Positions 21,295-33,835 of a stretch of DNA of 64,000 nucleotides are shown piece by piece; the stretch's first letter is position 1, and each line of letters starts with the position of its first letter. This stretch comes from Herbiconiux sp. VKM Ac-1786. Lineage in GTDB: Bacteria; Actinomycetota; Actinomycetes; Actinomycetales; Microbacteriaceae. A program made the position numbers and the translations under genes. The notes below the pieces were generated by a model. That model was not told the DNA's origin, searched no databases, and was given only the letters and a program-made list of their open reading frames with translations. The DNA lies in the NCBI RefSeq assembly GCF_015350805.1, contig NZ_JADKSG010000001.1:682001-746000 (forward strand), read 5' to 3'.

Positions 21295-22695
21295 ATGTCG
21301 GACCAGCCCGGAATCCCCGACGCCGAGTCGCTCGGCCGCGAGCCGAGGAGCATCGCCATCCTCGGTGCCGGTGGCGACCTCACCGAGCGGCTGCTGCTGC
21401 CCGGGCTGGGGAAGGTCGCCGAGCTGGCCGGCGGGCTCGAGCTCACCCTGATCGGCGCCGCCCGCACCCCGCAGAGCGACGAGGAGTGGCAGGGCCTCGT
21501 GCGCCGCAGTCTCGAGGCGGCGGAGATCGCGCCGGCCACCGTCGACGCACTCGCGAAGGCGGCGCGCTTCGTCGCCACCGACGCCTCCGACCCCGCCGAG
21601 CTGAAGACCCTGCTCGACGCCTGCCCGTCCTCCCCCGTGCTCTACGTGGCCCTGCCGCCCGCGATGGGGCACGCCGTCGCCGAGTCGCTGGGTCAGATCG
21701 AGCTGCCCGACGACCTCGTCGTGGCGATCGAGAAGCCGTTCGGCGAGAACCTCGACGACGCCCGCGCACTGAACGAGGCGCTGGCCGCCGTCATCTCCGA
21801 GGACCGGCTCTGGCGCATCGACCACTTCCTCGGCAACGCGACCGTGCTCGGCATGCTGGGCCTGCGCTTCGGCAACCGGCTGCTCGAGTCGGGCTGGAGC
21901 GCCGACGAGATCGAGAAGGTCGAGATCGTCTTCGACGAGGAGCTCGGGCTCGAGGGCCGGGCCGCGTTCTACGACTCCACCGGCGCCCTGCGCGACATGC
22001 TGCAGAGCCACCTGCTGATGGTGCTGGCGCTGACCACGCTCGAGCGGCCCGACCGCATCACGGCCGACGACGTGCACGACCGGATGGCCGAGGTGCTCGG
22101 CGCCGTGCGGCTCTGGCGCGACGACCCGCACACCGCCCGCCGCGCCCGCTACACCGAGGGACGCGTCGACGGCCGGTTCTTCCCCTCGTACGTCGACGAG
22201 GACGACGTCGATCCCGCCAACGGCATCGAGACCCTCGCACAGCTGCTGCTGCAGGTCGACACCCCGCGCTGGGAGGGCGTGCCGTTCGTGCTGCGCTCGG
22301 GCAAGGCGATCGGCTCGCCGCGCGCCGAGGTCGCGGTGCACTTCCGGCCGTCCTCGCCGCCCGAGGGGCTCGGCGGCGCCGATGCCGGTGCGGGAACGGT
22401 GCTGCGGATGTCCCTGCTGAACGGCGACGTCGACCTCGACCTGTTCGTGAACAGCGCCGACGACACCGATCGGCTCGAACGCGTGCAGCTCGAGGCGCGG
22501 CCCGGGGAGGCCGAGCTCGATGCCTACGGGCAGGTGCTGGCGGGCATCCTGGCGCACGACCGGCTGCTGTCGGTGCGGGGCGACATCGCCGAGCAGTGCT
22601 GGCGCATCGTCACGCCGGTGCTGAACGCGTGGGCAGCGGGCGAGACGCCGCTCGAGGAGTACGAGGCGGGGAGCGCGGGGCCGGCCGACTGGTGA
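21295..22695 (+). CDS. glucose-6-phosphate dehydrogenase family, divergent paralogue
   Basis: A protein of 466 residues similar in length to G6PD, with the Rossmann start ILGAGGDLTERLLLPG, the EKPFGENL motif, RIDHFLGN at about 174-181, and SHLL with the catalytic-type His in the C-terminal domain. G6PD oxidises glucose 6-phosphate with NADP. The canonical RIDHYLGKE motif is altered: the conserved Lys is Asn181, and the glycine-rich loop is GAGGDL instead of GxSGDL. It also lacks the usual tkt-tal-zwf-opcA context. It may therefore act on another sugar phosphate or have reduced activity. Confidence 0.8.
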   Translation: MSDQPGIPDAESLGREPRSIAILGAGGDLTERLLLPGLGKVAELAGGLELTLIGAARTPQSDEEWQGLVRRSLEAAEIAPATVDALAKAARFVATDASDPAELKTLLDACPSSPVLYVALPPAMGHAVAESLGQIELPDDLVVAIEKPFGENLDDARALNEALAAVISEDRLWRIDHFLGNATVLGMLGLRFGNRLLESGWSADEIEKVEIVFDEELGLEGRAAFYDSTGALRDMLQSHLLMVLALTTLERPDRITADDVHDRMAEVLGAVRLWRDDPHTARRARYTEGRVDGRFFPSYVDEDDVDPANGIETLAQLLLQVDTPRWEGVPFVLRSGKAIGSPRAEVAVHFRPSSPPEGLGGADAGAGTVLRMSLLNGDVDLDLFVNSADDTDRLERVQLEARPGEAELDAYGQVLAGILAHDRLLSVRGDIAEQCWRIVTPVLNAWAAGETPLEEYEAGSAGPADW

Positions 22696-22730: not shown

Positions 22731-23477
22731 TCAGCGCGGGGGCAGCCCCGCGATGAAGTCGGCCAGCACGGCGAGCGACCCCTCGACGGTGGCCGCGAGG
22801 ATGTGCTCGCCCTTGGCCGCGGTCGCGTGCGACGGGTCGCCGAAGACGCCCGAGGGCGAGAACGGGTGCAGCTGCATCGGTCGCGTGCCGAAGTCGCTCG
22901 GGAAGCTCGGGTACTCGGCCGCGTAGCGCTCCGGATGCACGTGCCCCGGTTCGAGGGCCAGCATGATCGACGTCTCGACCTCCTCGGCGTGATTCAGGCC
23001 CGGGGCGGCACCGCGGCTCGTGCGCACCTCGGCGACGGCCTCGTCCATGCCCGGGTAGTCGAGCGCGAGAGCGGGCAGGATGCGCTCGGCGTTCAACCGG
23101 CGCACGGCCGCGTAGAGCGGCTGCCGGTTGCCCCAGTCCCCGTTCACGACGATCAATGCTCGGGCGCCCGACGCCGCGAGCGAGCGTCCGATGTCGATGG
23201 CGATCGCCGTGACAGTCTCGGGCGAGAGGGACACGGTGCCGGGGTAGCCGGCGTTGTTCCAGGTGTCGCCGTAGTGGATCGGCGGCAGCAGCAGGGCGTC
23301 GAGCCGGTCGGCGAGGCGCTCGGCGACCGCGACGGCGGTGGCCGTGTCGGTGCCGAGCGGGAGGTGCGGGCCGTGCTGCTCGAGCGCGCCGAAGGGCAGC
23401 AGCGCGAGCCCGTCGCCGTGGGCGAGGTGGCTCGCCACGTCGGTCCAGGGCGTGGAGTAGGCATCGACGCGGGTCAC
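22731..23477 (-). CDS. creatininase-family amidohydrolase
   Basis: A protein of 248 residues matching the creatininase fold (also creatinine amidohydrolase, FAPy deformylase ArfB and MftE peptidase). Metal-ligand motifs are LLPFGALEQHGPHLPLGTD, with the Glu-x-His pair, and NHAEEVETS. The IVVNGDWGNR segment corresponds to the family's NGHGGN motif with His and Gly changed. The GTG start at 23477 overlaps the upstream amidohydrolase stop as GTGA. It ends the minus-strand arm of the LacI-controlled cluster. Substrate unknown. Confidence 0.85.
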   Translation of the reverse strand: MTRVDAYSTPWTDVASHLAHGDGLALLPFGALEQHGPHLPLGTDTATAVAVAERLADRLDALLLPPIHYGDTWNNAGYPGTVSLSPETVTAIAIDIGRSLAASGARALIVVNGDWGNRQPLYAAVRRLNAERILPALALDYPGMDEAVAEVRTSRGAAPGLNHAEEVETSIMLALEPGHVHPERYAAEYPSFPSDFGTRPMQLHPFSPSGVFGDPSHATAAKGEHILAATVEGSLAVLADFIAGLPPR

Positions 23478-24916
23478 GGCGCGTAGTCCTGGATCGTGCC
23501 GCGCGAGCGGTCGGTCAGCTCGGGCAGGCGGCGGTTGAGCTCGGCGATGGTGTCGGCGAGGTCCATCGTCACGAGCCGGCCATGCTCGACCACGATCCGG
23601 CCGTCGACGAGCACGGTCGTGACGTCGCTCGACTTGACGCTGAGCACCAGGGTCGCCGCCAGGTCGTGCATCGGCTGCAGGTGCGGCTTCTGCAGGTCGA
23701 TCAGCACCACGTCGGCCTTGAAGCCCGGCGCGAGAACCCCGAGCGAGTCCTGCAGGCCGAAGGCGGCCGCGCTCTGCCGGGTGGCGAGGTCGAGCGCGTG
23801 CGCCGAGGTCAGCCAGGTGGCGTCGAGGTGGTCGTCCTTCTGCTTCAGCGACATCATCCGCATGCTCTCCAGCACGTCGAGCGTGTTGTGCGAGGCCGGA
23901 CCGTCGGTGCCGATCCCCACGGTGACTCCGGCGTCGTGCAGCATCCGCACCGGTGTCGTCGTGTGCGCGTGCTTCATGTAGACCTTGGTGCAGGACGCGA
24001 CGGCGACGCGGTCGGCGTACGGCACCAGCCACTCGAGGTCGCTCTCGACGATGCCCGCGCCGTGCGCGATGATCGCACCCGTCTCGAGGATGCCGGTGTC
24101 GTGCAGCACCTGAACCGGCGTGCGGCCGTGCCGCTCGAGGCTCGATTCGGTCTGGTTCATGCTCTCGGCGGCATGGATGTGCGTGCGCACCCCGAGGCGC
24201 CGGGCCTGCTCGGCCGTGGCCTCCAGGTCGGCGTCGGCCACCGTGTAGGTGGCGTGCGGCCCGAGGGCGGTCGTGATCCGCCCGCCGGCCGCGCCGTTCC
24301 AGCGTTCGGCGAAGGCCGCCGAGCGCTCCAGCCCCTCGGCTCCCTGCGACGAGAAGAAGGTCGACGCGAGGTGCCCGCGGGCGCCGCTCTCGGCCACGAC
24401 CTCGGCGATGCGGTCGGTGAAGAAGTAGTGGTCGGCGAAGTTCGTCACCCCGGCGAGCAGCATCTCGCCCACGGCGAGCCGGGCGCCGAGCGTCACGTCG
24501 CGCTCGGTGAGGTTCACCTCCATCGGCCAGATGTGCTTGTTGAACCAGTCCTTGATCGGCACGTCCTCGGCCGAACCGCGGAACATGGTCATCGGCGAGT
24601 GCGTGTGCGAGTTCAGCAGGCCCGGAATCGCGACCTGCCCGGTGCCGTCGATGACGGTCGCCTGGGCGAGCAGGGCGGCGTCGACCTCGGCGGCCGGCCG
24701 GATCCAGGCGATCACCCCGGAGCGGATGCCGATCGCATGCCCCTCGAGGAATGTGGCGACTCCGCGGGCGGCCGTGTCCTCGCGCGGGAGCTCGGGGTAG
24801 CCGGGCGCGGGGCGGGTCGTGCCCGCCAGCACCGTCACCGGCGTGATGATCGTGTCGACGGTGTCGGAGCCGTCGGCCAGCGTGACCGAGTCGGCGTGCA
24901 TCCGCTCGTCGCTCAT
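23474..24916 (-). CDS. amidohydrolase, SAH/MTA-deaminase-like (TRZ/ATZ group)
   Basis: A metal-dependent hydrolase of 480 residues. The zinc-binding motifs are NSHTHSPM, the barrel His in THIHAAES, IAHGAG and GTDGPASH. The family deaminates adenine-type nucleosides, S-adenosylhomocysteine or methylthioadenosine, or dechlorinates triazines. The N-terminal and C-terminal beta-sandwich segments are present. ATG 24916 overlaps the upstream GATase-like stop (ATGA). With a nucleoside-type importer divergent from it, deamination of an imported purine-like compound is a plausible role. Confidence 0.85.
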   Translation of the reverse strand: MSDERMHADSVTLADGSDTVDTIITPVTVLAGTTRPAPGYPELPREDTAARGVATFLEGHAIGIRSGVIAWIRPAAEVDAALLAQATVIDGTGQVAIPGLLNSHTHSPMTMFRGSAEDVPIKDWFNKHIWPMEVNLTERDVTLGARLAVGEMLLAGVTNFADHYFFTDRIAEVVAESGARGHLASTFFSSQGAEGLERSAAFAERWNGAAGGRITTALGPHATYTVADADLEATAEQARRLGVRTHIHAAESMNQTESSLERHGRTPVQVLHDTGILETGAIIAHGAGIVESDLEWLVPYADRVAVASCTKVYMKHAHTTTPVRMLHDAGVTVGIGTDGPASHNTLDVLESMRMMSLKQKDDHLDATWLTSAHALDLATRQSAAAFGLQDSLGVLAPGFKADVVLIDLQKPHLQPMHDLAATLVLSVKSSDVTTVLVDGRIVVEHGRLVTMDLADTIAELNRRLPELTDRSRGTIQDYAP

Positions 24917-25668
24917 GCCGCCGCCTCCCCGGCGAGCCAGCGCGTCAGCTGGTCGAACAGCGTGGTGTAGCCCGGCCACTGCACGAAGCCGGGCGGCGCC
25001 CAGTGCGGCGCGATGTCCGAGGTGAACGCGGCGGTGCGGCCCTTGCCGTACTCCCCGACGACGAGCAGCGGATGCCCGGCGCAGCGTGCGAGCTCGATCG
25101 ACCCCTCGCGCACCGTCACCTCGTTCAGCCCGAGCAGCGCCGGCCACTCGCCCTCGAGGCCCGCCGTCACCGGATGGGCGACCACCGTCGACGGCGCTGC
25201 CCCCGACGGCAGCTCGACCCGGTCGTCGCGATCGAGCACGCCGACCGGCAGCACCTCGGCGAGCGCGGTGCGCCCCCATCGGGCCTTGGCGTCGATGCCC
25301 GAGAAAGTCATGTAGCCGCCCGCCATCAGCAGTCCGCCACCGAGCTCGGCGAAGCGCCGCAACACCTCGATCAGGTCGACCGCCGTCTCGGAGCGGCCGA
25401 ACGTGGCGGGAGGCAGCTGGAAGGTGTTCGCCCCGACGTCGGAGAGCACGACAACATCGGCGATCGACCACAGCTCCTCGGCCGTCGTCGGCAGGGCATC
25501 CGTGATCTCGTGGCACGGCAGGTGCGTCACCTCGTGGCCCGCCTCGCGCAGGGCGGCGGTGAACTCGGCGCCGCCGAGCGTGAACTCGGAGGTGGTGAAG
25601 GAGTCGAAGCCCTTCTGGTGGATCGAGTGCACGAACCACGATTCGCCGAGCAGCAGGATGCGGGTCAC
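24913..25668 (-). CDS. glutamine-amidotransferase-like (GATase1_like, DUF1355-type) protein
   Basis: A cytoplasmic protein of 251 residues with a class I glutamine-amidotransferase-like flavodoxin fold: VTRILLLGESW at the start, DVVVLSDVGA, GGGLLMAGGYMTFSG, and VVGEYGKGRTAAFTSD near the end. The usual catalytic Cys nucleophile elbow appears as MAGGY, without Cys, so it may not be an amidotransferase. The start is GTG 25668 with GAAGGAG upstream, and it overlaps the LacI stop as GTGA. It is the second gene of a four-gene operon. Confidence 0.75.
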   Translation of the reverse strand: MTRILLLGESWFVHSIHQKGFDSFTTSEFTLGGAEFTAALREAGHEVTHLPCHEITDALPTTAEELWSIADVVVLSDVGANTFQLPPATFGRSETAVDLIEVLRRFAELGGGLLMAGGYMTFSGIDAKARWGRTALAEVLPVGVLDRDDRVELPSGAAPSTVVAHPVTAGLEGEWPALLGLNEVTVREGSIELARCAGHPLLVVGEYGKGRTAAFTSDIAPHWAPPGFVQWPGYTTLFDQLTRWLAGEAAA

Positions 25669-26756
25669 GGGGTCTCCTTCGGGTCGGGGATGACGGCGGG
25701 GGCGGCGGCGGCCGCGGCGGGCGCGGGAGCCGGACCGGGGTGCTCGCGGGTCGAATGACCCGGCACCAGCTGAGGGGCCAGGCTGACCCGGCGCGCGATG
25801 CGCTCGCCGACGGGCTCCCGCCGGCGCTGCTGGGCGTCGAGCAGCAGGCGCACGGCCTCCCGCCCCATCTCGGGCCACGGATGCCGCAGGGTCGTGACCG
25901 TCAGGTCTTCGCGACCGGGCGCGAGATCGAGCAGGCTGACGACCTGCACCCGGCCGGGAACCGTGATGCCGCGCATCCGGAGCACGGCCAGCACGCCGGC
26001 GGCCACGTCGTCGTTGGCGCAGATGATCGCGTCGGGCAGGGCACCCGGTCCGGCCGCGACCAGGCGCTCGGCCGCGCGGATGCCGCCGTCGAGCACCGCC
26101 GGGGTGAAGGGGGCGACGTCCACGGCCGCCGCGCCCTCGGCGGCGCCGCGCAGGGCCCGGATGCGGCGGGCGTCGGCGGGAGCATCCGGATCCAGGCCGA
26201 CGACGAGCAGGCGCCGGGCCTCCCGCTCGACGAGGTGGGCGATGAGCATGGCGGTCGCGCGGTCCTCGTCGAGGCCGACCGAGTCGGAGCGGTCGGTGAT
26301 GACGAAGCGGCCGACCTGCACGATCGGCACCGGACCGGCGGCCTCGATCGACTCCTGGCTCGCCTCGAGCGAGGAGGGGCAGATGATGATGCCGTCGACG
26401 CGGCGGGCCATCAGCGACTCGACGTTGCCGACGTCGTGCAGCGCGTCGGGCTCGGAGTAGCGCAGCACGAGCGAGAGGTCGTTGCGCTCGAGGCCGTCGC
26501 TGACCGACTCGATCAGGGCTGAGAGGAAGCCGGTCGTGTAGCGGGGCAGCACCAGTCCGACGGTCTCGGTGCGCTGCAAGCGCAGGGCGCTGGCGACGGC
26601 GTTGCGGCGGTACCCGAGCTCGCGGCTGGCGTCGCGCACCTTGCGGTGGAGGGTATCGCTCACGGGCCGCGCCCCGGTGAGCGCCCGCGAGGCCGTAGCC
26701 ACGCTGACGCCGGCGCGGGCGGCCACGTCGGCGAGCGTCGGCTCAGGGGTCTGCAT
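25665..26756 (-). CDS. LacI-family transcriptional regulator of the nucleoside-like uptake cluster
   Basis: A regulator of 363 residues with the LacI HTH (TLADVAARAGVSVATASRAL) and hinge (NAVASALRLQRTETVG), then a periplasmic-binding-like effector domain. A low-complexity Pro/Ala-rich tail follows STREHPG. ATG 26756 is used; an upstream frame adds residues with no ribosome site. It heads the minus-strand operon and is divergent from the BMP importer. Two boxes in the intergenic region resemble its expected target and suggest control of both arms. Confidence 0.88.
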   Translation of the reverse strand: MQTPEPTLADVAARAGVSVATASRALTGARPVSDTLHRKVRDASRELGYRRNAVASALRLQRTETVGLVLPRYTTGFLSALIESVSDGLERNDLSLVLRYSEPDALHDVGNVESLMARRVDGIIICPSSLEASQESIEAAGPVPIVQVGRFVITDRSDSVGLDEDRATAMLIAHLVEREARRLLVVGLDPDAPADARRIRALRGAAEGAAAVDVAPFTPAVLDGGIRAAERLVAAGPGALPDAIICANDDVAAGVLAVLRMRGITVPGRVQVVSLLDLAPGREDLTVTTLRHPWPEMGREAVRLLLDAQQRRREPVGERIARRVSLAPQLVPGHSTREHPGPAPAPAAAAAAPAVIPDPKETP

Positions 26757-26800
26757 GCCGACAGCATAGGCTCTCCCGGGCACCGGGGCAGGCAAATTCT

Positions 26801-26814
26801 GGCAAACGATTACA
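26801..26814. promoter_or_regulatory. LacI-type operator box A (LacI/BMP intergenic region)
   Basis: GGCAAACGATTACA has the CG-centred LacI pattern and shares GCAAACGATT with the box at 26923. It lies 45 bases upstream of the LacI start, consistent with autoregulation of the minus-strand operon. Confidence 0.65.
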
Positions 26815-26922
26815 GCACCTTGCCGACGTTAAACATGCTAGAAACATTCGAGAAATGCGGTCGCAACGGCGCGGGCGAACACTGAGTCTCGCACCGGTTT
26901 CCCGTCCCCCACCCGACATTTC

Positions 26923-26937
26923 TGCAAACGATTTCCA
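26923..26937. promoter_or_regulatory. LacI-type operator box B (before BMP lipoprotein gene)
   Basis: TGCAAACGATTTCCA resembles the LacI consensus TGnAAnCGnTTnCA. It lies immediately before the ribosome site of the BMP lipoprotein (AAGGAG at 26937-26942), so a bound repressor would block leader transcription. Confidence 0.7.
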
Positions 26938-26946
26938 AGGAGCCCC

Positions 26947-27987
26947 ATGACGATCTCGCGCAAGGCCGCCGCCCTCGGCGCCACCGCCCTCACCGCCGCG
27001 CTGCTGCTCTCGGCCTGCTCGGGCAAGACCGCCACGGTGCAGCCGAGCGCCGACGCCGACCAGCCGAAGATCGCGATGCTCTACGGCACGACCGGCGACT
27101 TCTCGTTCATGGACAGCGCCTACAAGGGCTTCACCGACGCCCAGTCGGAGTTCTCGTTCACCCCGCTGGACTTCTCGAGCCCGAACACCGACGACTACCA
27201 GGACCGCCTCGACCTCGCGATCTCGCAGGGCGCCGGTCTCGCGATCGGCATCGGCTTCCAGTACGCGACGCCGATGGAGCAGACCACCGAGCACCCCGAC
27301 ACGCAGTTCGTGGCCGTCGACATCGACAAGGGCACCTCGATCCCCGACGTGACCACCATCTCGTTCGCGGCCGAGCAGTCCTCCTACCTCGTCGGCGTGG
27401 CCGCGGCGCTCACCTCGAAGACCGGGCACATCGGCTTCATCGGCGGGGTCGACCAGCCGAGCATCCAGAACTTCTTCGTGGGCTACGAGGCCGGTGCGAA
27501 GTCGGTGAACCCGTCGATCACGGTCGACACCACGTACCTCTCGCCGCTCGGCGACTTCACCGGCTTCTCCGACCCCACCAAGGGCAAGGAGGCCGCCGCC
27601 TCGATGTACTCCGGCGGCGCCGACGTCATCTACGCCGCCGCGGGCGGGTCGGGCCAGGGCGTCTACGAGCAGGCCGCGGCCTCGTCGACGGATGCGCAGA
27701 AGAACTGGGCCATCGGTGTCGACGGCGACGTCTACAACCAGGTGGACGAGTCGATCAAGCCGTTCATCCTCACCTCGGCGATCAAGAACGTGAACGTCGC
27801 GGTCGAGGACTCGATCAAGTCGTTCCTCGACGGCAGCCTCGAGGCCGGCGAGCAGGACTTCGACCTCTCGAACGACGGCGTCGGTTACTCCACAAGCGGC
27901 GATTTCCTCGATGCCTACACAGATCAGCTCGAGAAGGCCAAGCAGGACATCATCGACGGCACCATCGAGGTGCCGAGCGCGGTCTGA
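26947..27987 (+). CDS. BMP-family lipoprotein, nucleoside-type ABC substrate-binding protein
   Basis: A lipoprotein of 346 residues of the Bmp/PnrA family, which binds purine nucleosides and related compounds. The lipobox LLSAC places the anchor at Cys24. PKIAMLYGTTGDFSFMDSAYKGF and HIGFIGGVDQPSIQNFFVGYEAGAK are the usual family motifs. It is the first gene of a four-gene importer operon under LacI box B. AAGGAG lies before ATG 26947. The ligand is not predictable beyond the family; a purine or nucleoside analogue is likely. Confidence 0.92.
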   Translation: MTISRKAAALGATALTAALLLSACSGKTATVQPSADADQPKIAMLYGTTGDFSFMDSAYKGFTDAQSEFSFTPLDFSSPNTDDYQDRLDLAISQGAGLAIGIGFQYATPMEQTTEHPDTQFVAVDIDKGTSIPDVTTISFAAEQSSYLVGVAAALTSKTGHIGFIGGVDQPSIQNFFVGYEAGAKSVNPSITVDTTYLSPLGDFTGFSDPTKGKEAAASMYSGGADVIYAAAGGSGQGVYEQAAASSTDAQKNWAIGVDGDVYNQVDESIKPFILTSAIKNVNVAVEDSIKSFLDGSLEAGEQDFDLSNDGVGYSTSGDFLDAYTDQLEKAKQDIIDGTIEVPSAV

Positions 27988-28003
27988 TCCGCGCCCCCAC
28001 ACG

Positions 28004-28046
28004 GCGCCCGGTCGCCGGCGGCCCCACACCGCCGGCGGTCGGGCGC
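28004..28046 (+). terminator. intercistronic hairpin after BMP gene, possible attenuator
   Basis: GCCGGCGG (28014-28021) pairs with CCGCCGGC (28029-28036), and GCGCCC (28004-28009) with GGGCGC (28041-28046), separated by an internal mismatch of four bases. Such hairpins after binding-protein genes commonly lower expression of the downstream ATPase and permeases relative to the binding protein. Confidence 0.6.
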
Positions 28047-28093
28047 TTCCACTCCCCTCCCCGACCCGTTCCCTCCCCCGACAGGAGCACCCG

Positions 28094-29650
28094 ATGAGCG
28101 AGACAGCCGAGACCGACGTGCTGGTGCGCTTGACGGGCATCGTCAAGCGCTTCGGCGCCTTCGTGGCGAACGACCGCATCGACCTCACGGTTCGGGCGGG
28201 CACCGTGCACGCGATCGTCGGCGAGAACGGGGCCGGCAAGTCGACGCTGATGAAGATCCTCGCCGGCGAGGAGCGGCCCGACGAGGGCACGATCGAGATC
28301 GCCGGGTCGCCCCGCACGTTCTCCTCGCCGCGGGATGCGCAGCAGGCCGGCATCGGCATGGTGCACCAGCACTTCCTGCTCGCCTCGGCGCTGCGAGTGT
28401 GGGAGAACGTGGTGCTGGCCGACGAACCCGGATCGGCCTTCCGACTCGACAGCGCCGCCGCCCGCTCACGGGTGGCCGACCTCGCCTCACGCAACGGCTT
28501 CGAGGTCGACGTCGACGCGGTCGTGCGCGACGTCGGTGTCGGCGGCCGCCAGCGGGTCGAGATCCTCAAGGTGCTCTACCGCGACGCGCGCATCATCATC
28601 CTCGACGAGCCCACCGCCGTGCTCGTGCCGAGCGAGGCCGCGTCGCTGTTCGCCGCCATGCGACGCTTCACCGAGGCGGGCGCCGCCGTCATCTTCATCT
28701 CGCACAAGCTCGACGAGGTGCTCGACTTCGCCGATGAGATCACCGTCATCCGGGCCGGGGCCGTCGTCGGCCGCACGACCCCTCAGGAATCGTCCGCCTC
28801 CGACCTCGCCGCCCTGATGGTCAAGGTCGCGATGCCGGCCGTCGCCCCGCGGGAGGTCCCGCCGGGCACCGAGGTCGTGCTCGCCGCGCACGGCGTCACC
28901 GTGGGCGAGGCCGGCGAGGTGCCGGCGCTCGACGACGTCTCGCTCGAGGTGCACTCCGGCGAGATCGTCGGCATCGCCGGGGTCGAGGGCAACGGCCAGT
29001 CGGAGCTGCTGATGGCCCTGCTCGGCCGCGTCGCCCACACCGGGCGCATCAGCATGGGCGGGGAGGACATCGACGGCCTGCCCACCGAGACCCGGCGCGC
29101 CCGTGGTCTCGCCTACATCCCCGAAGACCGGCATCGCGACGGCGTCGTGCTGTCGATGGCGCTGCGCGAGAACGCCGCGCTCGGCTACCACGGCCGGCCG
29201 CCGGTGAAGCGCGGGCCGTGGTTCAGCCGGTCGGGCGCCGCCGCCCAGGCCCGCGCCATCATCAGCCGCTTCGACGTGCGGGGCGGCGACCCGTCCACGC
29301 CCGCGTCGGCGCTCTCGGGCGGCAACCAGCAGAAGTTCATCGTGGGGCGCGAGCTCGGCAGCGATCCGCGCGTGCTGATCGCCGCGCATCCGACCCGCGG
29401 TGTCGACATCGGCGCCCAGTCGGCGGTCTGGAGCGAGCTCACCGCCGCGCGCGACCGGGGGCTCGGCACGCTGCTCATCTCGGCCGACCTCGACGAGCTG
29501 CTGGCGCTCAGCGACCGGCTGCTCGTGTTCTACCGCGGGCGCATCGTGGGGGCGCTCGACCCGCGGCGGGTGGATGCGCAGGAGCTCGGGGAGTACATGA
29601 CGGGCGTGCGAGGTCACACCACGAACACCCCCGAAGGAGGTGCCGCATGA
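28094..29650 (+). CDS. ABC transporter ATPase, tandem nucleotide-binding domains (nucleoside/BMP type)
   Basis: A protein of 518 residues with two fused ATPase domains, as in RbsA/NupO-like proteins. Domain 1 has Walker A GENGAGKST (about 43-51), the degenerate signature VGVGGRQRVE and Walker B RIIILDEPTAVL. Domain 2 has GVEGNGQSEL in place of a perfect Walker A and LSGGNQQK as signature, the standard asymmetry of the family. The ATG at 28094 has ACAGGAG upstream. It energises the two permeases that follow by ATGA overlap. Confidence 0.94.
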   Translation: MSETAETDVLVRLTGIVKRFGAFVANDRIDLTVRAGTVHAIVGENGAGKSTLMKILAGEERPDEGTIEIAGSPRTFSSPRDAQQAGIGMVHQHFLLASALRVWENVVLADEPGSAFRLDSAAARSRVADLASRNGFEVDVDAVVRDVGVGGRQRVEILKVLYRDARIIILDEPTAVLVPSEAASLFAAMRRFTEAGAAVIFISHKLDEVLDFADEITVIRAGAVVGRTTPQESSASDLAALMVKVAMPAVAPREVPPGTEVVLAAHGVTVGEAGEVPALDDVSLEVHSGEIVGIAGVEGNGQSELLMALLGRVAHTGRISMGGEDIDGLPTETRRARGLAYIPEDRHRDGVVLSMALRENAALGYHGRPPVKRGPWFSRSGAAAQARAIISRFDVRGGDPSTPASALSGGNQQKFIVGRELGSDPRVLIAAHPTRGVDIGAQSAVWSELTAARDRGLGTLLISADLDELLALSDRLLVFYRGRIVGALDPRRVDAQELGEYMTGVRGHTTNTPEGGAA

Positions 29651-30765
29651 TCCGGCGCATCACGGTCACCCTGGCTGGCCCCGTCGTCTCGGTGCTGCTC
29701 GCCCTGCTCGTCACCACGCTCTTCCTCACCATCGGCGGCTACTCGGCCACGAGCGCCTACGAGGTGATGTGGAACTACGGCATCGAGCCCGCCTCGCTCG
29801 TCTCGGCGCTGAACAACGCGGTGCCGCTCTACCTCGCCGGGGTCGCCGCGGCCTTCGCGCTGCGCATGGGCCTGTTCAACATCGGCGTCGACGGCCAGTA
29901 CCGCGTCGCCGCCCTGGCCGGAGCGGTCGTGGCCGCGAACCTGCCGCTGCCGCTGTACCTGCGACTGCCGATCACGCTGATCGTCTGCTGCGTCACCGGC
30001 GCGCTCTGGGCCCTCGTGCCCGCGCTGCTGAAGGTCTACCGGGGCGTCAGCGAGGTGATCACCTCGATCCTGATGAACGCGATCGCCACCACGGTCGTCG
30101 CGATCCTGCTGGCCGACGTGTTCCGCTCCGGCGGCGGCCAGAACACCGGCACCGCGATCATCGGCGACGAGGGCGCGATGCCCGTGCTGATCGATCTCGG
30201 CATCGGCAACCGCACCTCGATCACGGGCTTCCTCGTCGTGGCGATCGTGGTGGGCATCCTGTTCTACCTGATCCAGTACCGCACGGTCTTCGGCTTCACC
30301 CTGCAGGTCGCCTCGCGCTCGCCCGAGGCGGCCGAGTCGGCGGGCATCAAGGTCAACCGGCGCATCATCTGGGCGATGCTCGGCTCCGGCGCGATCGCCG
30401 GGCTCGTCGGCATGCCGCACGTGCTGAGCACCGCCTTCCGCTTCGACGGCACCCTGCCCACCGACCTCATGTTCACCGGGCTGGCGGCCGCGCTGCTCGG
30501 CCGCTCGCACCCCATCGGCATCGCGGTCGGCGCGTTCATTCTCGCCTTCGTCGAGCGCAGCTCGCAGGTGCTCGGGCTCGTGCAGCTGCCGACCGAGGTC
30601 GGCTCGGTGTTCATGGCCGTGATCCTGCTCAGCTCGGCGGTCGGCTACTGGCTCACCGAGCGTGCCGACCAGCGCGTCGCCCTCTGGAACGCGATCCGCC
30701 GCCGACGCCGCGAGAACCCGCCGCCCGCCGCTCCCCTGCCGACCGGAATGGAGGCCTCGCGATGA
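29647..30765 (+). CDS. ABC permease, nucleoside/BMP type, subunit 1
   Basis: A permease of 372 residues with multiple hydrophobic segments beginning at ITVTLAGPVVSVLLALLVTT. The FNIGVDGQYRVAALAG motif is characteristic of BPD_transp_2 permeases of the RbsC/YufP type. ATG 29647 overlaps the ATPase stop by four bases. It pairs with the next gene, as is usual for two-permease nucleoside importers. Confidence 0.93.
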   Translation: MIRRITVTLAGPVVSVLLALLVTTLFLTIGGYSATSAYEVMWNYGIEPASLVSALNNAVPLYLAGVAAAFALRMGLFNIGVDGQYRVAALAGAVVAANLPLPLYLRLPITLIVCCVTGALWALVPALLKVYRGVSEVITSILMNAIATTVVAILLADVFRSGGGQNTGTAIIGDEGAMPVLIDLGIGNRTSITGFLVVAIVVGILFYLIQYRTVFGFTLQVASRSPEAAESAGIKVNRRIIWAMLGSGAIAGLVGMPHVLSTAFRFDGTLPTDLMFTGLAAALLGRSHPIGIAVGAFILAFVERSSQVLGLVQLPTEVGSVFMAVILLSSAVGYWLTERADQRVALWNAIRRRRRENPPPAAPLPTGMEASR

Positions 30766-32051
30766 CCGACACCGTCGAGCCCACCGCCCCCACCGCTCCG
30801 GCGGCGTCCCCGCGCTCGCTCGCCCCGAGCCGCCGCCGGCTGCGCGCCGGACTCCGCTGGGGCCTGCTCGGCCTCGGCCTGATCATCGTCGCCCAGTACG
30901 TCGCAGACGCCCCGGGCATCGCGGCCTCGTCGACCTGGGGCTCGGCACTGCGGCTCACCGTGCCGATCGCCGTCGTCGCGATCGGCGGCCTCTACTCCGA
31001 GCGCGCGGGCGTCATCAACGTCGGCCTCGAGGGCATGATGATCGGCGGCACCTGGATGGCCGGGGTCTTCGGCTGGCTCTGGGGCCCCTGGGCCGCACTC
31101 GGCGGCGGCATCGTGGGCGGGCTCGTGTTCGGGCTGCTGATGGCGGTGCTCTGCATCGAGCTCGGGCTGAACCAGCTCGTCGTCGGTGTCGCCATCAACG
31201 TCGTCGCCGGCGCCTCCGCCCGGTTCGCCAGCGACATCGTGTTCAACGGCGTCGACGGCGGCACCATCGCCCGCTCGCCGCGCATCGACGGCTCGCTGCC
31301 GGTGCTCAGCGTGCCGTTCCTCTCGGGCGGCCTCGGCACGCCCGACCTCACCGCCGACATGGAGCGGTCGGGCATCCCGGTCGTCTCGCAGCTCGGCGGC
31401 ATCGTGGGCGGGCTCACGCACGACGTGTCGCTCGCCGCCGTGATCGGGCTGCTGCTCATCCCGGCCACCGCCTACGTGCTCTGGCGCACCAAGTTCGGCC
31501 TGCGCTGGCGGGCCGCCGGTGAGGAGCCCGCCGCCCTGCAGGCCCTCGGCGGCAAGGTGCACCGCACCCGCTACATCGCCGTGCTCGTCGGCAGCGGCCT
31601 GGCCGGCTTCGCGGGCGGCTACCTGGCGCTCATCTCGCAGGCCTACGTCGAGAACCAGACCGCGGGGCGCGGCTTCATCGGCCTCGCGACCCTGATCTTC
31701 GGCAACTGGATGCCCTCGGGCGTCTTCCTCGGATCGTCGCTGTTCGGCTTCTCCGACGCCGTCGGGCTCGGGCGGCCCGAGACGTTCCGGGCGCTGCTGT
31801 TCATCCTCGCCGTGATCTTCCTGGTCGTCGGAGCCCTGCGGTTCTGGCGCGGGGCCCGCCGCTCGGGCATCGCACCGCTCGCGCTCGGGGCCGTGCTCGT
31901 GCTGGTGTTCCTGTTCGTGCCGCTGCCGCCCGAGCTCGCCACCGCCGCTCCCTACCTCGTCACCCTCGCGGTGCTCGTGGTGGCGGGCACGACGATGCGC
32001 CCGCCCGCCGCCCTCGGGCACCTCTTCCCCCGCCGCACCTCGCGCAGCTGA
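30762..32051 (+). CDS. ABC permease, nucleoside/BMP type, subunit 2
   Basis: A permease of 429 residues. It has a Pro/Ala-rich cytoplasmic leader (1-35), then hydrophobic segments with GLYSERAGVINVGLEGMMIGG, the conserved BPD_transp_2 motif. It is longer than the usual about 310-residue partner, with extra hydrophobic helices near the C-terminus (LVLVFLFVPLPPEL). ATG 30762 overlaps the preceding stop (ATGA), and the gene ends 35 bases before an amidohydrolase. Confidence 0.9.
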   Translation: MTDTVEPTAPTAPAASPRSLAPSRRRLRAGLRWGLLGLGLIIVAQYVADAPGIAASSTWGSALRLTVPIAVVAIGGLYSERAGVINVGLEGMMIGGTWMAGVFGWLWGPWAALGGGIVGGLVFGLLMAVLCIELGLNQLVVGVAINVVAGASARFASDIVFNGVDGGTIARSPRIDGSLPVLSVPFLSGGLGTPDLTADMERSGIPVVSQLGGIVGGLTHDVSLAAVIGLLLIPATAYVLWRTKFGLRWRAAGEEPAALQALGGKVHRTRYIAVLVGSGLAGFAGGYLALISQAYVENQTAGRGFIGLATLIFGNWMPSGVFLGSSLFGFSDAVGLGRPETFRALLFILAVIFLVVGALRFWRGARRSGIAPLALGAVLVLVFLFVPLPPELATAAPYLVTLAVLVVAGTTMRPPAALGHLFPRRTSRS

Positions 32052-32086
32052 CCCGCCGTTCCGCCCTCACCACCCGTCAGGACCCC

Positions 32087-33340
32087 ATGAACCACTCCCT
32101 CACCGCCGAGCTCTGGGACGGCACCGCCGCCCGCGGCACCGTCACCCTCGACTGGACGGTCGACGGCACCGACGGCACCATCTCGGGGCTGCGGCCCCTC
32201 GGCGACGGAGGCACCGCATCCGCTCGGCCCGAACCGGGCGGGGTCGACGGGTCGCTTCCCGCCGGGTACAGCATCATCCCGGGGCTCGTCGACACCCATG
32301 TGCACCTCGTCGGGCACGCCGGGCCCGGCACGGCCGACTTCCTCACCTGGCCGCTCACCACGCGGCCCGAGGAGCAGACCCTGCACGGCCTCGCCAACGC
32401 CCGTGCCGCGCTCCGCGGCGGGGTCACGACGCTGCGCGACCTCTCGGCCGACGACATCCAGTTCTCACTGCGGCGGGCGCTCGAGCAGGGGGTCGTCGAG
32501 GGCCCGCGGCTGCAGGCGCACGGCATGGTCAGCATGACCGCGGGGCACGGCGACCTCTTCACCCCGCCCGCCTTCCCGCTGCGGAAGCCGGTGGCCGACG
32601 GCCCCGACGAGTGCCGCAAGCTGGTGCGGCACTGGGCCCGCGCCGGCGCCGACGGCATCAAGATCGCCACCAGCGGCGGCGTGCTCTCGGTGGGCGACAA
32701 GAGCGCCTGGCGCAACTACACCGACGCCGAGATCGACGCGATCGTCGACGAGGCGCACGCACTCGGCCTCCGCGTGGCCGCCCACGCGCACACCGAGGCG
32801 GGAATCGACGCTGCCGTCTCGCACGGGGTCGATTCGATCGAGCACGGCACACTGCTGAACGCCGGCCAGTCCGGCCGCATCGCCGCCCTCGGCATCACGG
32901 TCGCGCCGACCCTGCTGATCAACGACCGCATCGCGGCCGGCCGCAACGGCGTCTCGCCCGAGCAGGCCGACAAGGCCGCGGCCCTCGTCGTCGAACGCGA
33001 CTCGCGGATGCGCGAGGCCGCCGAGCTGGGCGTCGACTTCGTGCTGGGCACCGACGCGAACGGTCACCACGTCGACTTCGGCGACCAGATGGAGGAGGTA
33101 CGGCTGATGGCGGCCACCTTCGGCTGGACGCCGGCGCGGGCCCTGGAGGCGGCGACCTCCCGCGCCGCGCGCGCCATCGGCGAGGAGGGGCGGCTCGGAG
33201 TGCTCGCGCCGGGTGCCGCGGCCGACTTCCTCGTGATGGAGGGGCGGCCGTGGGAGGAGCTGGAAGAGCTCGACACGTCCCGGATCGTGGCGGTCGTCTC
33301 GCGGGGACGGGTCGTGGCCGGAGCGCTGCCCGGCGCCTGA
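32087..33340 (+). CDS. amidohydrolase, prolidase/imidazolonepropionase-like
   Basis: An amidohydrolase-superfamily enzyme of 417 residues without a signal peptide. The first metal motif is VDTHVHLVGH, a Lys likely carboxylated is in GADGIKIATSGGV, followed by AHAH, SIEHGT and VLGTDANG. This residue set matches the carboxy-Lys prolidase-like branch rather than cytosine deaminases. ATG 32087 lies 35 bases after the permease, so it is the last gene of the importer operon and probably attacks the imported compound or its product. Substrate not predictable. Confidence 0.85.
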   Translation: MNHSLTAELWDGTAARGTVTLDWTVDGTDGTISGLRPLGDGGTASARPEPGGVDGSLPAGYSIIPGLVDTHVHLVGHAGPGTADFLTWPLTTRPEEQTLHGLANARAALRGGVTTLRDLSADDIQFSLRRALEQGVVEGPRLQAHGMVSMTAGHGDLFTPPAFPLRKPVADGPDECRKLVRHWARAGADGIKIATSGGVLSVGDKSAWRNYTDAEIDAIVDEAHALGLRVAAHAHTEAGIDAAVSHGVDSIEHGTLLNAGQSGRIAALGITVAPTLLINDRIAAGRNGVSPEQADKAAALVVERDSRMREAAELGVDFVLGTDANGHHVDFGDQMEEVRLMAATFGWTPARALEAATSRAARAIGEEGRLGVLAPGAAADFLVMEGRPWEELEELDTSRIVAVVSRGRVVAGALPGA

Positions 33341-33388: not shown

Positions 33389-33835
33389 TCAGCCCTCGGC
33401 GAGCGCTCCGATGCTGCGGCGGAGCTGGTCGGCGAAGGCCGCCTGCTCGGCGGGGCTCAGGCCTGACTTCATGCGGTCCTCGACGCCTCTCACCGCCGCG
33501 CTGGCCTGCGCCAGGAGCGCCCGGCCCTCCGCGGTGAGCTCCGTCGGCAGCACGCGCCCCGACGACGGCTGCTCGGGTCGCGTCACCTGACCGGCCCGCT
33601 CGAGCGACTGCAGCAGCACGTTCATCGACTGCCGGGTCACGAAGGCCCCGCGGGCCAGCTCCGAGTTGGACAGCCCGGGACGCTGCGCCAGGAGCTCCAG
33701 GCAGGAGTAGTGCGTCACCGTCATGCCGAGCGGCTTCAGCACGGCCTCCATCGCGAGCCGCAGCGCCGTCGCGGCCTCCTTCAGCAGATAGCCGACCGAG
33801 GTCGGCAGCTCGATCCCGTTCGACTCGACATCCAT
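33389..33835 (-). CDS. MarR-family transcriptional regulator
   Basis: A winged-helix regulator of 148 residues with core LKPLGMTVTHYSCLELLAQRPG, SNSELARGAFVTRQSMNVLLQSLE and the wing GRVLPTELTAEG. It is divergent from a glyoxalase-fold gene, and its own ATG lies inside the first of two TGTCA palindromes. It likely represses itself and that gene. Confidence 0.88.
   Translation of the reverse strand: MDVESNGIELPTSVGYLLKEAATALRLAMEAVLKPLGMTVTHYSCLELLAQRPGLSNSELARGAFVTRQSMNVLLQSLERAGQVTRPEQPSSGRVLPTELTAEGRALLAQASAAVRGVEDRMKSGLSPAEQAAFADQLRRSIGALAEG

What the first reader, a model, noticed from the sequence alone, without database searches (positions are those of the whole stretch)
22731..33340. 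LacI-controlled two-armed system: BMP importer plus two amidohydrolases, creatininase-family hydrolase and GATase1-like protein
Nine genes lie around one divergent region. The minus arm has LacI, a GATase1-like protein without an obvious Cys nucleophile, a deaminase-type amidohydrolase and a creatininase-family hydrolase, all joined by GTGA/ATGA overlaps. The plus arm has a BMP-type nucleoside-like importer and a carboxy-Lys amidohydrolase. Three different C-N hydrolases under one regulator suggest stepwise opening of an imported nitrogenous ring or nucleoside analogue. I know of no named pathway with exactly this set.
Basis: partly seen in the sequence, partly recalled or inferred. Interest (0 to 1): 0.7.

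Follow-up and report, generated by a model that had tools for sequence, protein, structure and literature searches.

The report
Nucleoside uptake cluster with unexplained hydrolases
A bacterium of the genus Herbiconiux carries a gene cluster that very probably imports nucleosides and takes them apart; the cluster recurs in related bacteria and, in altered form, in unrelated ones, but the job of at least three of its proteins is still unknown.

Summary
The nine genes are real and placed as stated: creatininase-family hydrolase, deaminase-type amidohydrolase, PF07090 protein and LacI on one arm; BMP-type ABC importer and a carboxylated-lysine-type amidohydrolase on the other. Two LacI-type operator-like sites lie between the arms. 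All nine genes lie together in 5 of 16 Herbiconiux genomes held; variants occur in other Microbacteriaceae. The creatininase-family protein belongs to a group apart from the other PF02633 proteins compared, including a context-identified BrbF. Of its 80 best relatives, 58 have a BMP gene within 10 kb and 41 a nucleoside- or base-salvage gene (own-genome chance for a BMP gene about 4%); 16 have neither. Alphaproteobacterial relatives sit with adenine deaminase-like, nucleoside hydrolase and cytidine deaminase-like genes. The window deaminase keeps the residue set of methylthioadenosine/adenosine-type deaminases. Best reading: an inducible nucleoside scavenging module. The reactions of the creatininase-like, carboxy-lysine and PF07090 proteins stay open.

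The parts
22731..23477 (-). creat: creatininase-family (PF02633) metallohydrolase of a group marked by HA[DE]E-x-ETS and usually GVFGDP; NGD[WFY]GN in most actinobacterial members, NGHFGN in alphaproteobacterial ones
   Evidence: Pfam 212.6 bits; below all NCBIfam equivalog cut-offs; alignments, tree and motif count; AlphaFold model pLDDT 95, best PDB match creatininase
23474..24916 (-). AHdeam: COG0402-type amidohydrolase, deaminase-like, with H104/H106/H221/H248/E251/H285/D338 and the WPxE glutamate E133
   Evidence: Pfam; best solved relatives 4dyk, 4gbd, 4dzh, 3lnp, 4f0r; residues invariant in 10 of 10
24913..25668 (-). GAT: PF07090 GATase1_like protein, no conserved Cys
   Evidence: Pfam 294 bits; PDB relatives 3soz, 2gk3 named only as cytoplasmic proteins; alignment of 14
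25665..26756 (-). LacI-family regulator
   Evidence: Pfam LacI + Peripla_BP_3
26801..26813 (+). operator-like site 1, GGCAAACGATTAC, upstream of the LacI gene
   Evidence: pattern occurs 3 times in the own genome, reversed control 0; kept in 4 of 6 aligned Herbiconiux loci, diverged in 2
26923..26935 (+). operator-like site 2, TGCAAACGATTTC, just upstream of the BMP gene
   Evidence: same core in 6 of 6 aligned Herbiconiux loci
26947..27987 (+). BMP/PnrA-type lipoprotein, solute-binding protein of the importer
   Evidence: Pfam 177.9 bits; best solved relatives 7x0r (Lbp), 6yab/6y9u, 2fqw
28094..29650 (+). ABC importer ATPase (two ABC domains)
   Evidence: Pfam ABC_tran, two stretches
29647..30765 (+). 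ABC importer permease 1
   Evidence: Pfam BPD_transp_2
30762..32051 (+). ABC importer permease 2
   Evidence: Pfam BPD_transp_2
32087..33340 (+). AHkcx: amidohydrolase of the arginine-carboxypeptidase / prolidase / ochratoxinase group (carboxylated lysine type)
   Evidence: Pfam; best solved relatives 3mtw, 9kov, 3be7; metal-ligand positions invariant in 10 of 10

Best explanation
The locus is a LacI-controlled nucleoside scavenging module. A BMP/PnrA-type ABC importer takes up purine-type nucleosides or close relatives (inferred from homology and context). LacI sits on two operators between the arms and lets go when substrate or product is present (inferred). The COG0402-type enzyme deaminates an adenosine-like nucleoside (inferred from its residues and from the place of its paralogue beside a DeoD-type phosphorylase). 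The creatininase-family and carboxy-lysine enzymes then hydrolyse C-N bonds that ordinary salvage enzymes cannot handle: an amide, formamide or lactam in modified or partly broken nucleosides. The PF07090 protein is an accessory protein of nucleoside/pentose operons of unknown chemistry. Shown: gene content, operator-like sites, conservation, nucleoside context. Inferred: ligand, order of steps, each enzyme's reaction.
For: Nine-gene set together in 5 of 16 Herbiconiux genomes. Of the 80 best creat relatives 58 have a BMP hit of 60 bits or more within 10 kb (44 of 53 loci of 20 kb or more) and 41 a nucleoside- or base-salvage gene at 100 bits or more; the own genome has 7 BMP genes in 3.89 Mb, so about 4% is expected for a random 20 kb stretch. 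Alphaproteobacterial-type loci: 23 of 29 with adenine deaminase-like, 18 with nucleoside hydrolase, 16 with cytidine deaminase-like genes. L046, L052 and L054 place creat + AHdeam beside adenosine deaminase-like and thymidine phosphorylase genes (AHkcx too, as L071, L082, L096); L046 and L054 also beside PNP, cytidine deaminase and a divergent BMP importer. Example neighbours checked by family models: thymidine phosphorylase, cytidine deaminase, PNP of L054 and DeoD of L035 over cut-off; nucleoside hydrolase of L116, adenosine deaminase and phosphorylase of L039 over Pfam cut-off. AHdeam keeps the WPxE glutamate and the HxxE motif of methylthioadenosine-type deaminases. Its paralogue AHdeam2 follows DeoD in the own genome, L042 and L043, where L041, L050 and G008 have adenosine deaminase. 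A creatininase-family enzyme, S. meliloti BrbF, deformylates a ribosylated formamidopyrimidine (PMC9478397).
Against: No ligand or reaction was measured. 16 of 80 loci have neither a BMP hit nor a nucleoside gene at the strict thresholds, 7 of them 20 kb or longer; creat stands alone in L080, L092, L097 and L137. AHdeam2 and adenosine deaminase stand together beside DeoD in L062 and L065, so AHdeam2 does not simply replace it. AHkcx was found in 0 of 29 alphaproteobacterial-type loci. The alphaproteobacterial and Rathayibacter COG0402 relatives examined (6 of 6) lack the Glu of the HxxE motif, so the enzyme beside creat need not be a deaminase there. Several neighbours score under their NCBIfam cut-offs: adenosine deaminase of L050 394.3/412, cytidine deaminase 143.2/153 and adenine deaminase 281.7/472.5 of L117. 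The nine-gene cluster itself holds no nucleoside hydrolase, phosphorylase or ribokinase.
Confidence: 0.65

Rival explanations
1. Toolbox, not pathway: the three hydrolases act on different compounds that enter through the same broad importer, and are kept together only by common regulation. (This can hold together with the nucleoside module; it denies the stepwise order.)
For: Parts are lost and swapped: creat+AHkcx alone (L040, L045), creat+GAT beside adenosine deaminase and DeoD (L041), AHdeam replaced by the AHdeam2 type (L038), no GAT (L044, L047-L049), no creat (L025).
Against: AHkcx and creat persist side by side without a BMP gene in several genera (L069, L077, L088, L113; within 1 kb), which argues that at least these two belong to one route.
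Confidence: 0.4
2. Ring-opening route: AHkcx and creat open a purine-derived ring and remove the formyl or formimino group (FAPy-like or imidazolone-like intermediate), as creatininase opens creatinine and BrbF deformylates a formamidopyrimidine ribotide.
For: Family precedent BrbF (PMC9478397); purine context; AHkcx-creat pair.
Against: I recognised no decarboxylase, formiminotransferase or other expected partner of the clostridial xanthinase route among the genes listed (by eye, no dedicated search); AHkcx was not found in the alphaproteobacterial-type loci; creat is outside the clade that holds the BrbF identified by its MarR/CobW flanks.
Confidence: 0.15
3. Salvage of amino-acid-carrying nucleosides (such as t6A or aminoacyl/peptidyl nucleosides): AHkcx cleaves the amide or urea bond, AHdeam removes the 6-substituent.
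For: The AHkcx group holds arginine carboxypeptidases, a prolidase, ochratoxinase and, further off, phenylurea and molinate hydrolases; AHdeam keeps nucleoside-type residues.
Against: No direct evidence; creat has no evident step in it.
Confidence: 0.12
4. Creatinine, hydantoin or triazine catabolism.
For: Family names only.
Against: creat scores 122.9 against the creatininase cut-off 235 and does not keep E122, W154 and W174 of creatininase; nucleoside context instead.
Confidence: 0.03

Closest known systems
BMP/PnrA-type nucleoside ABC importers
   Same: BMP lipoprotein, two-domain ATPase, two permeases in one run; that Lbp and PnrA bind nucleosides is recalled
   Different: Ligand not tested; linked to three unusual hydrolases
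Actinobacterial nucleoside salvage clusters (BMP importer, cytidine deaminase, thymidine phosphorylase, adenosine deaminase, PNP; seen here in L046 and L054)
   Same: creat, AHdeam and AHkcx occur inside such clusters
   Different: The Herbiconiux nine-gene set has its own importer and no phosphorylase of its own
BrbF, creatininase-family formamidase of riboflavin biosynthesis (Sinorhizobium meliloti SMc02977, PMC9478397)
   Same: PF02633 family, C-N hydrolase on a ribosylated pyrimidine
   Different: Separate clade and context; the Rhizobium lusitanum gene with MarR and CobW flanks (L155) groups with the other paralogues
COG0402 deaminases of the 5'-methylthioadenosine / S-adenosylhomocysteine kind (4f0r; also 4dyk, 4gbd)
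   Same: Best solved relatives; WPxE and HxxE motifs
   Different: Below the NCBIfam equivalog cut-offs listed; substrate unknown
Zn-dependent arginine carboxypeptidase Cc2672 and prolidase-like amidohydrolases (3mtw, 3be7)
   Same: Among the best solved relatives of AHkcx
   Different: 229.3 bits against the 500-bit cut-off of the Xaa-Pro dipeptidase model; context is nucleosides, not peptides

Membership tests
Creatininase (NCBIfam TIGR04448) | score over the curated cut-off | tested here: not met
   122.9 bits against 235
Creatininase (NCBIfam TIGR04448) | H120, E122, W154, W174 of the Pseudomonas enzyme (numbers from mutant titles and alignments; roles recalled) | tested here: not met
   aligned window residues are D, G and P; W174 falls on P or on a gap, depending on the alignment. 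Alphaproteobacterial relatives keep H at the first position
PF02633 creatininase fold family | Pfam gathering score and fold | tested here: met
   212.6 bits against 31.3; model with TM-score about 0.8 to creatininase
MftE (mycofactocin) | score over cut-off | tested here: not met
   138.5 against 172
IolN (3-dehydro-scyllo-inosose hydrolase) | score over cut-off | tested here: not met
   64.9 against 245
BrbF formamidase | MarR and CobW neighbours, same clade | tested here: not met
   window neighbours differ; L155 with MarR/CobW (Pfam) lies in another clade; context from PMC9478397
BrbF formamidase | deformylation of the ribosylated formamidopyrimidine | not testable with these tools
   no enzyme assay
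BMP-type nucleoside importer | PF02608 lipoprotein with ATPase and two permeases | tested here: met
BMP-type nucleoside importer | binding of nucleosides | not testable with these tools
   no binding assay
COG0402 adenosine-type deaminase | HxH, H, HxxE, H, D and ribose-binding Glu (roles recalled from TM0936) | tested here: met
   invariant in 10 of 10; Glu of WPxE and HxxE aligned in 4dyk and 4f0r
COG0402 adenosine-type deaminase | score over an equivalog cut-off | tested here: not met
   best 334.9 against 609; 25 of 42 families shown
Class I glutamine amidotransferase | catalytic Cys of the triad | tested here: not met
   no invariant or nearly invariant Cys in 14 homologues

The most novel reading that the evidence does not exclude
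The HA[DE]E/GVFGDP group of creatininase-family proteins, with its partners (carboxy-lysine amidohydrolase in Actinobacteria, adenine deaminase-like and cytidine deaminase-like proteins in Alphaproteobacteria, and PF07090), carries out an undescribed hydrolytic route by which imported modified or damaged purine nucleosides are opened or deformylated.
Probability: 0.2. Interest if true: 0.75.

Novelty: new variant of a known kind. Interest (0 to 1): 0.5.

Why it matters
Nucleoside uptake operons are common, but this one carries a creatininase-family group, an amidohydrolase and PF07090 for which I found no assigned function in the papers searched. Their recurring link to nucleoside genes in Actinobacteria and Alphaproteobacteria turns proteins with names such as 'creatinine amidohydrolase' and 'glutamine amidotransferase' into testable candidates for breakdown of modified or damaged nucleosides, whose catabolism recent papers call little known (start of the abstracts of PMC12299217 and PMC12709175, listing).

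Tried and rejected
Xanthinase-type purine breakdown: attractive because creatininase and a 4-imidazolonase would open like rings (recalled chemistry), but I recognised no partner enzyme of that route in the gene lists (by eye). I read only passages of PMC3519856 and PMC12507026; the paper that identified the gene cluster is not held, so its gene families could not be compared. The xanthine-riboswitch paper PMC7373994, on NMT1-linked genes, holds neither 'creatinin' nor 'bmp' in its main text. t6A/ct6A salvage: no evidence beyond family resemblance. A His-to-Asp change at a metal position as the mark of the group: true for 16 of 16 family members in A1, but alphaproteobacterial, Chloroflexi and Spirochaete relatives and Actinophytocola (L138) keep His, so it marks most actinobacterial members only. 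Replacement of adenosine deaminase by AHdeam2: seen in some loci, but both stand together in L062 and L065. Operator search for further regulon members: a single third site, at G000:C1:1952613-1952625, upstream of a gene that by eye encodes an alpha-glucosidase, probably another LacI's site. PF07090 elsewhere: of 192 plasmid records with a match I looked at 6; in 6 of 6 it lies with a LacI gene and a ribokinase/PfkB-type gene, in 3 of 6 a nucleoside hydrolase is also in the stretch; its function stays unknown.

Limits: labels come from similarity to reference proteins or from my reading of the sequence, except those checked; the gene caller was my own, fails on low-GC contigs (for instance L099) and missed the creat gene of L058 that one search reports. 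The 80 loci are the best of 495 relatives, share descent, and several genomes give more than one (for instance L064 and L083, L060 and L085). One search scored at most 6 candidates a genome, so 28 of 398 is a lower bound. One search used looser rules (importer also from ATPase plus permease; weak adenosine deaminase and cytidine deaminase hits; ribokinase) and gave 60 and 46 of 80; I use the stricter recount, 58 and 41 of 80. Groups were assigned by record title. L096 is titled an Acidobacteria MAG, but its contig has the length of G243:C118, drawn from the window's own family; I counted it with the actinobacterial loci. L098 and L106 hold only permease hits and count as without importer. The motif table mistranslated the minus-strand rows and left L142 empty; it was rebuilt.
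Full report
Observation. The minus arm is creat 22731-23477 (PF02633), AHdeam 23474-24916 (Amidohydro_1, COG0402-like), GAT 24913-25668 (PF07090) and LacI 25665-26756, with three 4-base overlaps. The plus arm is BMP 26947-27987 (PF02608), ATPase 28094-29650, permeases 29647-30765 and 30762-32051, and AHkcx 32087-33340 (Amidohydro_1). Next outward are a glucose-6-phosphate dehydrogenase gene at 21295-22695 and a gene at 33389-33835 that matches MarR-type regulators below their cut-offs.

Regulation. The LacI-BMP gap holds two copies of a LacI-type site, at 26801-26813 and 26923-26935. The pattern KGCAAWCGATTNC occurs three times in the 3.89 Mb genome and its reversed control not at all. In an alignment of six Herbiconiux loci the site before BMP keeps its core in 6 of 6, the site before LacI in 4 of 6, with 2 diverged. 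That LacI binds them is inferred.

Conservation in the genus. The locus L060, whose contig has the same length as that of relative G001, names the genus: Herbiconiux gentiana. By tblastn with the window proteins, all nine genes lie together in G010, G001, G003 and G012, besides the own genome; G011 has all but creat; G013 has AHkcx, GAT, AHdeam and creat but no importer hit; G007 has importer, LacI, creat, AHkcx and the second-type deaminase but no GAT there. AHdeam or its paralogue was found at E <= 1e-80 in 9 of 16 genomes of the genus, in G008 only at a contig end. G003, G011 and G013 carry a LacI-family gene beside GAT, in G003 and G011 in addition to the first.

Conservation in the family. 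creat at E <= 1e-45 occurs in 28 of 398 family genomes, 12 of 85 genera, a lower bound. I fetched 20 stretches, 19 around such genes of other genera and one around the own-genome paralogue, and read their genes. Six carry creat, AHdeam, AHkcx and a BMP importer close to the window's: L042, L043, L044, L048, L049, L050. L047 has importer, AHkcx and creat. L040 and L045 have creat and AHkcx with no importer. L041 has GAT and creat beside adenosine deaminase, DeoD and an NMT1/THI5-like ABC transporter. L046, L052 and L054 have creat and AHdeam with adenosine deaminase-like and thymidine phosphorylase genes; AHkcx is labelled in L046 and L054 and in all three (as L071, L082, L096). L053, L055, L056 and L057 have creat by a divergent BMP importer; L058 has such an importer and an AHkcx relative. 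L051 has creat alone. L059, the own-genome paralogue (57%), lies with an AHkcx paralogue (55%), another ABC importer (an ATPase 38% identical to the window's; BMP gene) and genes with adenosine deaminase and adenine deaminase domains.

Checks of neighbour names. NCBIfam: thymidine phosphorylase, cytidine deaminase and PNP of L054 and DeoD of L035 are over a cut-off; adenosine deaminase of L050 (394.3 against 412), cytidine deaminase (143.2 against 153) and adenine deaminase (281.7 against 472.5) of L117 are under; the L117 nucleoside hydrolase call, a partial one, found nothing at E <= 1e-40. Pfam: nucleoside hydrolase of L116, phosphorylase and adenosine deaminase of L039, pyrimidine phosphorylase domains of L046, PfkB of L117 and NMT1 of L035 are over cut-off.

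Beyond the family. A scan of one genome per species found 495 relatives; the best 80 were kept with up to 10 kb on each side. Labels came from phmmer against reference proteins. Strict recount: BMP hit of 60 bits or more 58 of 80 (44 of 53 loci of 20 kb or more); nucleoside- or base-salvage gene of 100 bits or more 41 of 80; neither 16 of 80, of which 7 are 20 kb or longer. In 29 alphaproteobacterial-type loci: BMP 25, adenine deaminase-like 23, nucleoside hydrolase 18, cytidine deaminase-like 16, COG0402 19, LacI 15, GAT 14, AHkcx 0. In 44 actinobacterial-type loci: BMP 31, AHkcx 34, COG0402 27, LacI 24, salvage gene 17, GAT 10. In 7 others (Chloroflexi, Spirochaete): BMP 2, with two more by ATPase and permease only (L131, L133). 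The own genome has 7 PF02608 genes, so a random 20 kb stretch would hold one in about 4% of cases; this estimate is for that genome only.

The creatininase-family protein. It is not an equivalog of creatininase, MftE or IolN by NCBIfam cut-offs. A tree of 57 proteins was built, 13 of them other PF02633 paralogues of Rhizobium, Kaistia, Mesorhizobium, Devosia and Herbiconiux. A fork with support 99/93 holds 12 of these 13; the last, L153, has a very long branch and is unplaced; the Ktedonosporobacter and Actinophytocola relatives (L137, L138) fall on the side of the 12 (94/88). HA[DE]E-x-ETS is present in 44 of 57 rows and in 0 of the 13 paralogues; GVFGDP or a close form is in 43 of 57, L079 lacking it in my translation, and L153 has IFGDP. 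One paralogue, L155 of Rhizobium lusitanum, is flanked by MarR and CobW genes, the context that PMC9478397 reports for BrbF (section 6 read). The Asp at the H120 position is seen in most actinobacterial members only. The model has mean pLDDT 95 and its best solved matches are creatininases, TM-score about 0.8.

The deaminase. Its best solved relatives are 4dyk, 4gbd, 4dzh, 3lnp and 4f0r, the last named 5-methylthioadenosine/S-adenosylhomocysteine deaminase. The WPxE glutamate, by recall the ribose-binding one of TM0936, and the HxxE motif are kept in 10 of 10 homologues aligned and in 4dyk and 4f0r. The paralogue AHdeam2 follows DeoD in the own genome and in L042 and L043; in L041, L050 and G008 adenosine deaminase stands there; in L062 and L065 both do. 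Four alphaproteobacterial and two Rathayibacter-type relatives lack the Glu of HxxE, 6 of 6, against a common deaminase reaction across all loci.

The other proteins. AHkcx belongs with arginine carboxypeptidase, prolidase and ochratoxinase-type enzymes, with weaker matches to phenylurea and molinate hydrolases. GAT has solved relatives named only as cytoplasmic or GATase1-like proteins (3soz, 2gk3, 3rht) and no conserved Cys. In the 6 plasmid regions looked at, GAT lies by LacI and ribokinase/PfkB genes, with BtpA/SgcQ, TenA, phosphotriesterase or nucleoside hydrolase genes in some.

Literature. Searches for GATase1_like and PF07090 gave 0 papers; joint searches on creatininase family/BMP/amidohydrolase/nucleoside and on nucleoside hydrolase/adenine deaminase/creatinin/BMP gave 0. 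Searches (12 of 12 listed; 10 of 29 listed) gave papers of which none, by title and start of abstract, is about such a cluster. I read the abstract, passages and section 6 of PMC9478397, and passages of PMC3519856, PMC12507026 and PMC7373994; other papers were seen in listings only. Most subscription journals are not held.

Verdict. The reactions of creat, AHkcx and GAT are open.

Noticed in passing
L035 5078-10946 (own genome, just upstream of the window): A second operon: NMT1/THI5-like ABC transporter, DeoD-type phosphorylase and a deaminase about 54% identical to AHdeam, with a LacI gene beside it.
   Followed up: partly
L059 (own genome C1:332000-351500): A paralogous locus: creat and AHkcx paralogues (57% and 55%) with another ABC importer and adenosine/adenine-deaminase-type genes.
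   Followed up: partly
L116, L117, L135, L107, L055, L057: COG0402 relatives in creat loci lack the Glu of the HxxE motif, so they may not be deaminases.
   Followed up: partly
L096 (title: Acidobacteria MAG) and L054 (G243:C118): Contigs of equal length, 88,096 bases; the genome was drawn from the window's own family, so the MAG title looks wrong.
   Followed up: no
L030 and L031: PF07090 protein beside genes that by eye are phosphotriesterase-like and a urease operon, in two family genomes.
   Followed up: no
L020, L021 (rhizobial plasmids): PF07090 with BtpA/SgcQ, TenA, ribokinase, phosphotriesterase and an ABC importer: a recurring cluster of unknown substrate.
   Followed up: no
L140, L141, L145, L149: Other PF02633 paralogues of Kaistia, Rhizobium and Devosia lie, by eye, near COG0402-type amidohydrolase or NMT1-like genes.
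   Followed up: no
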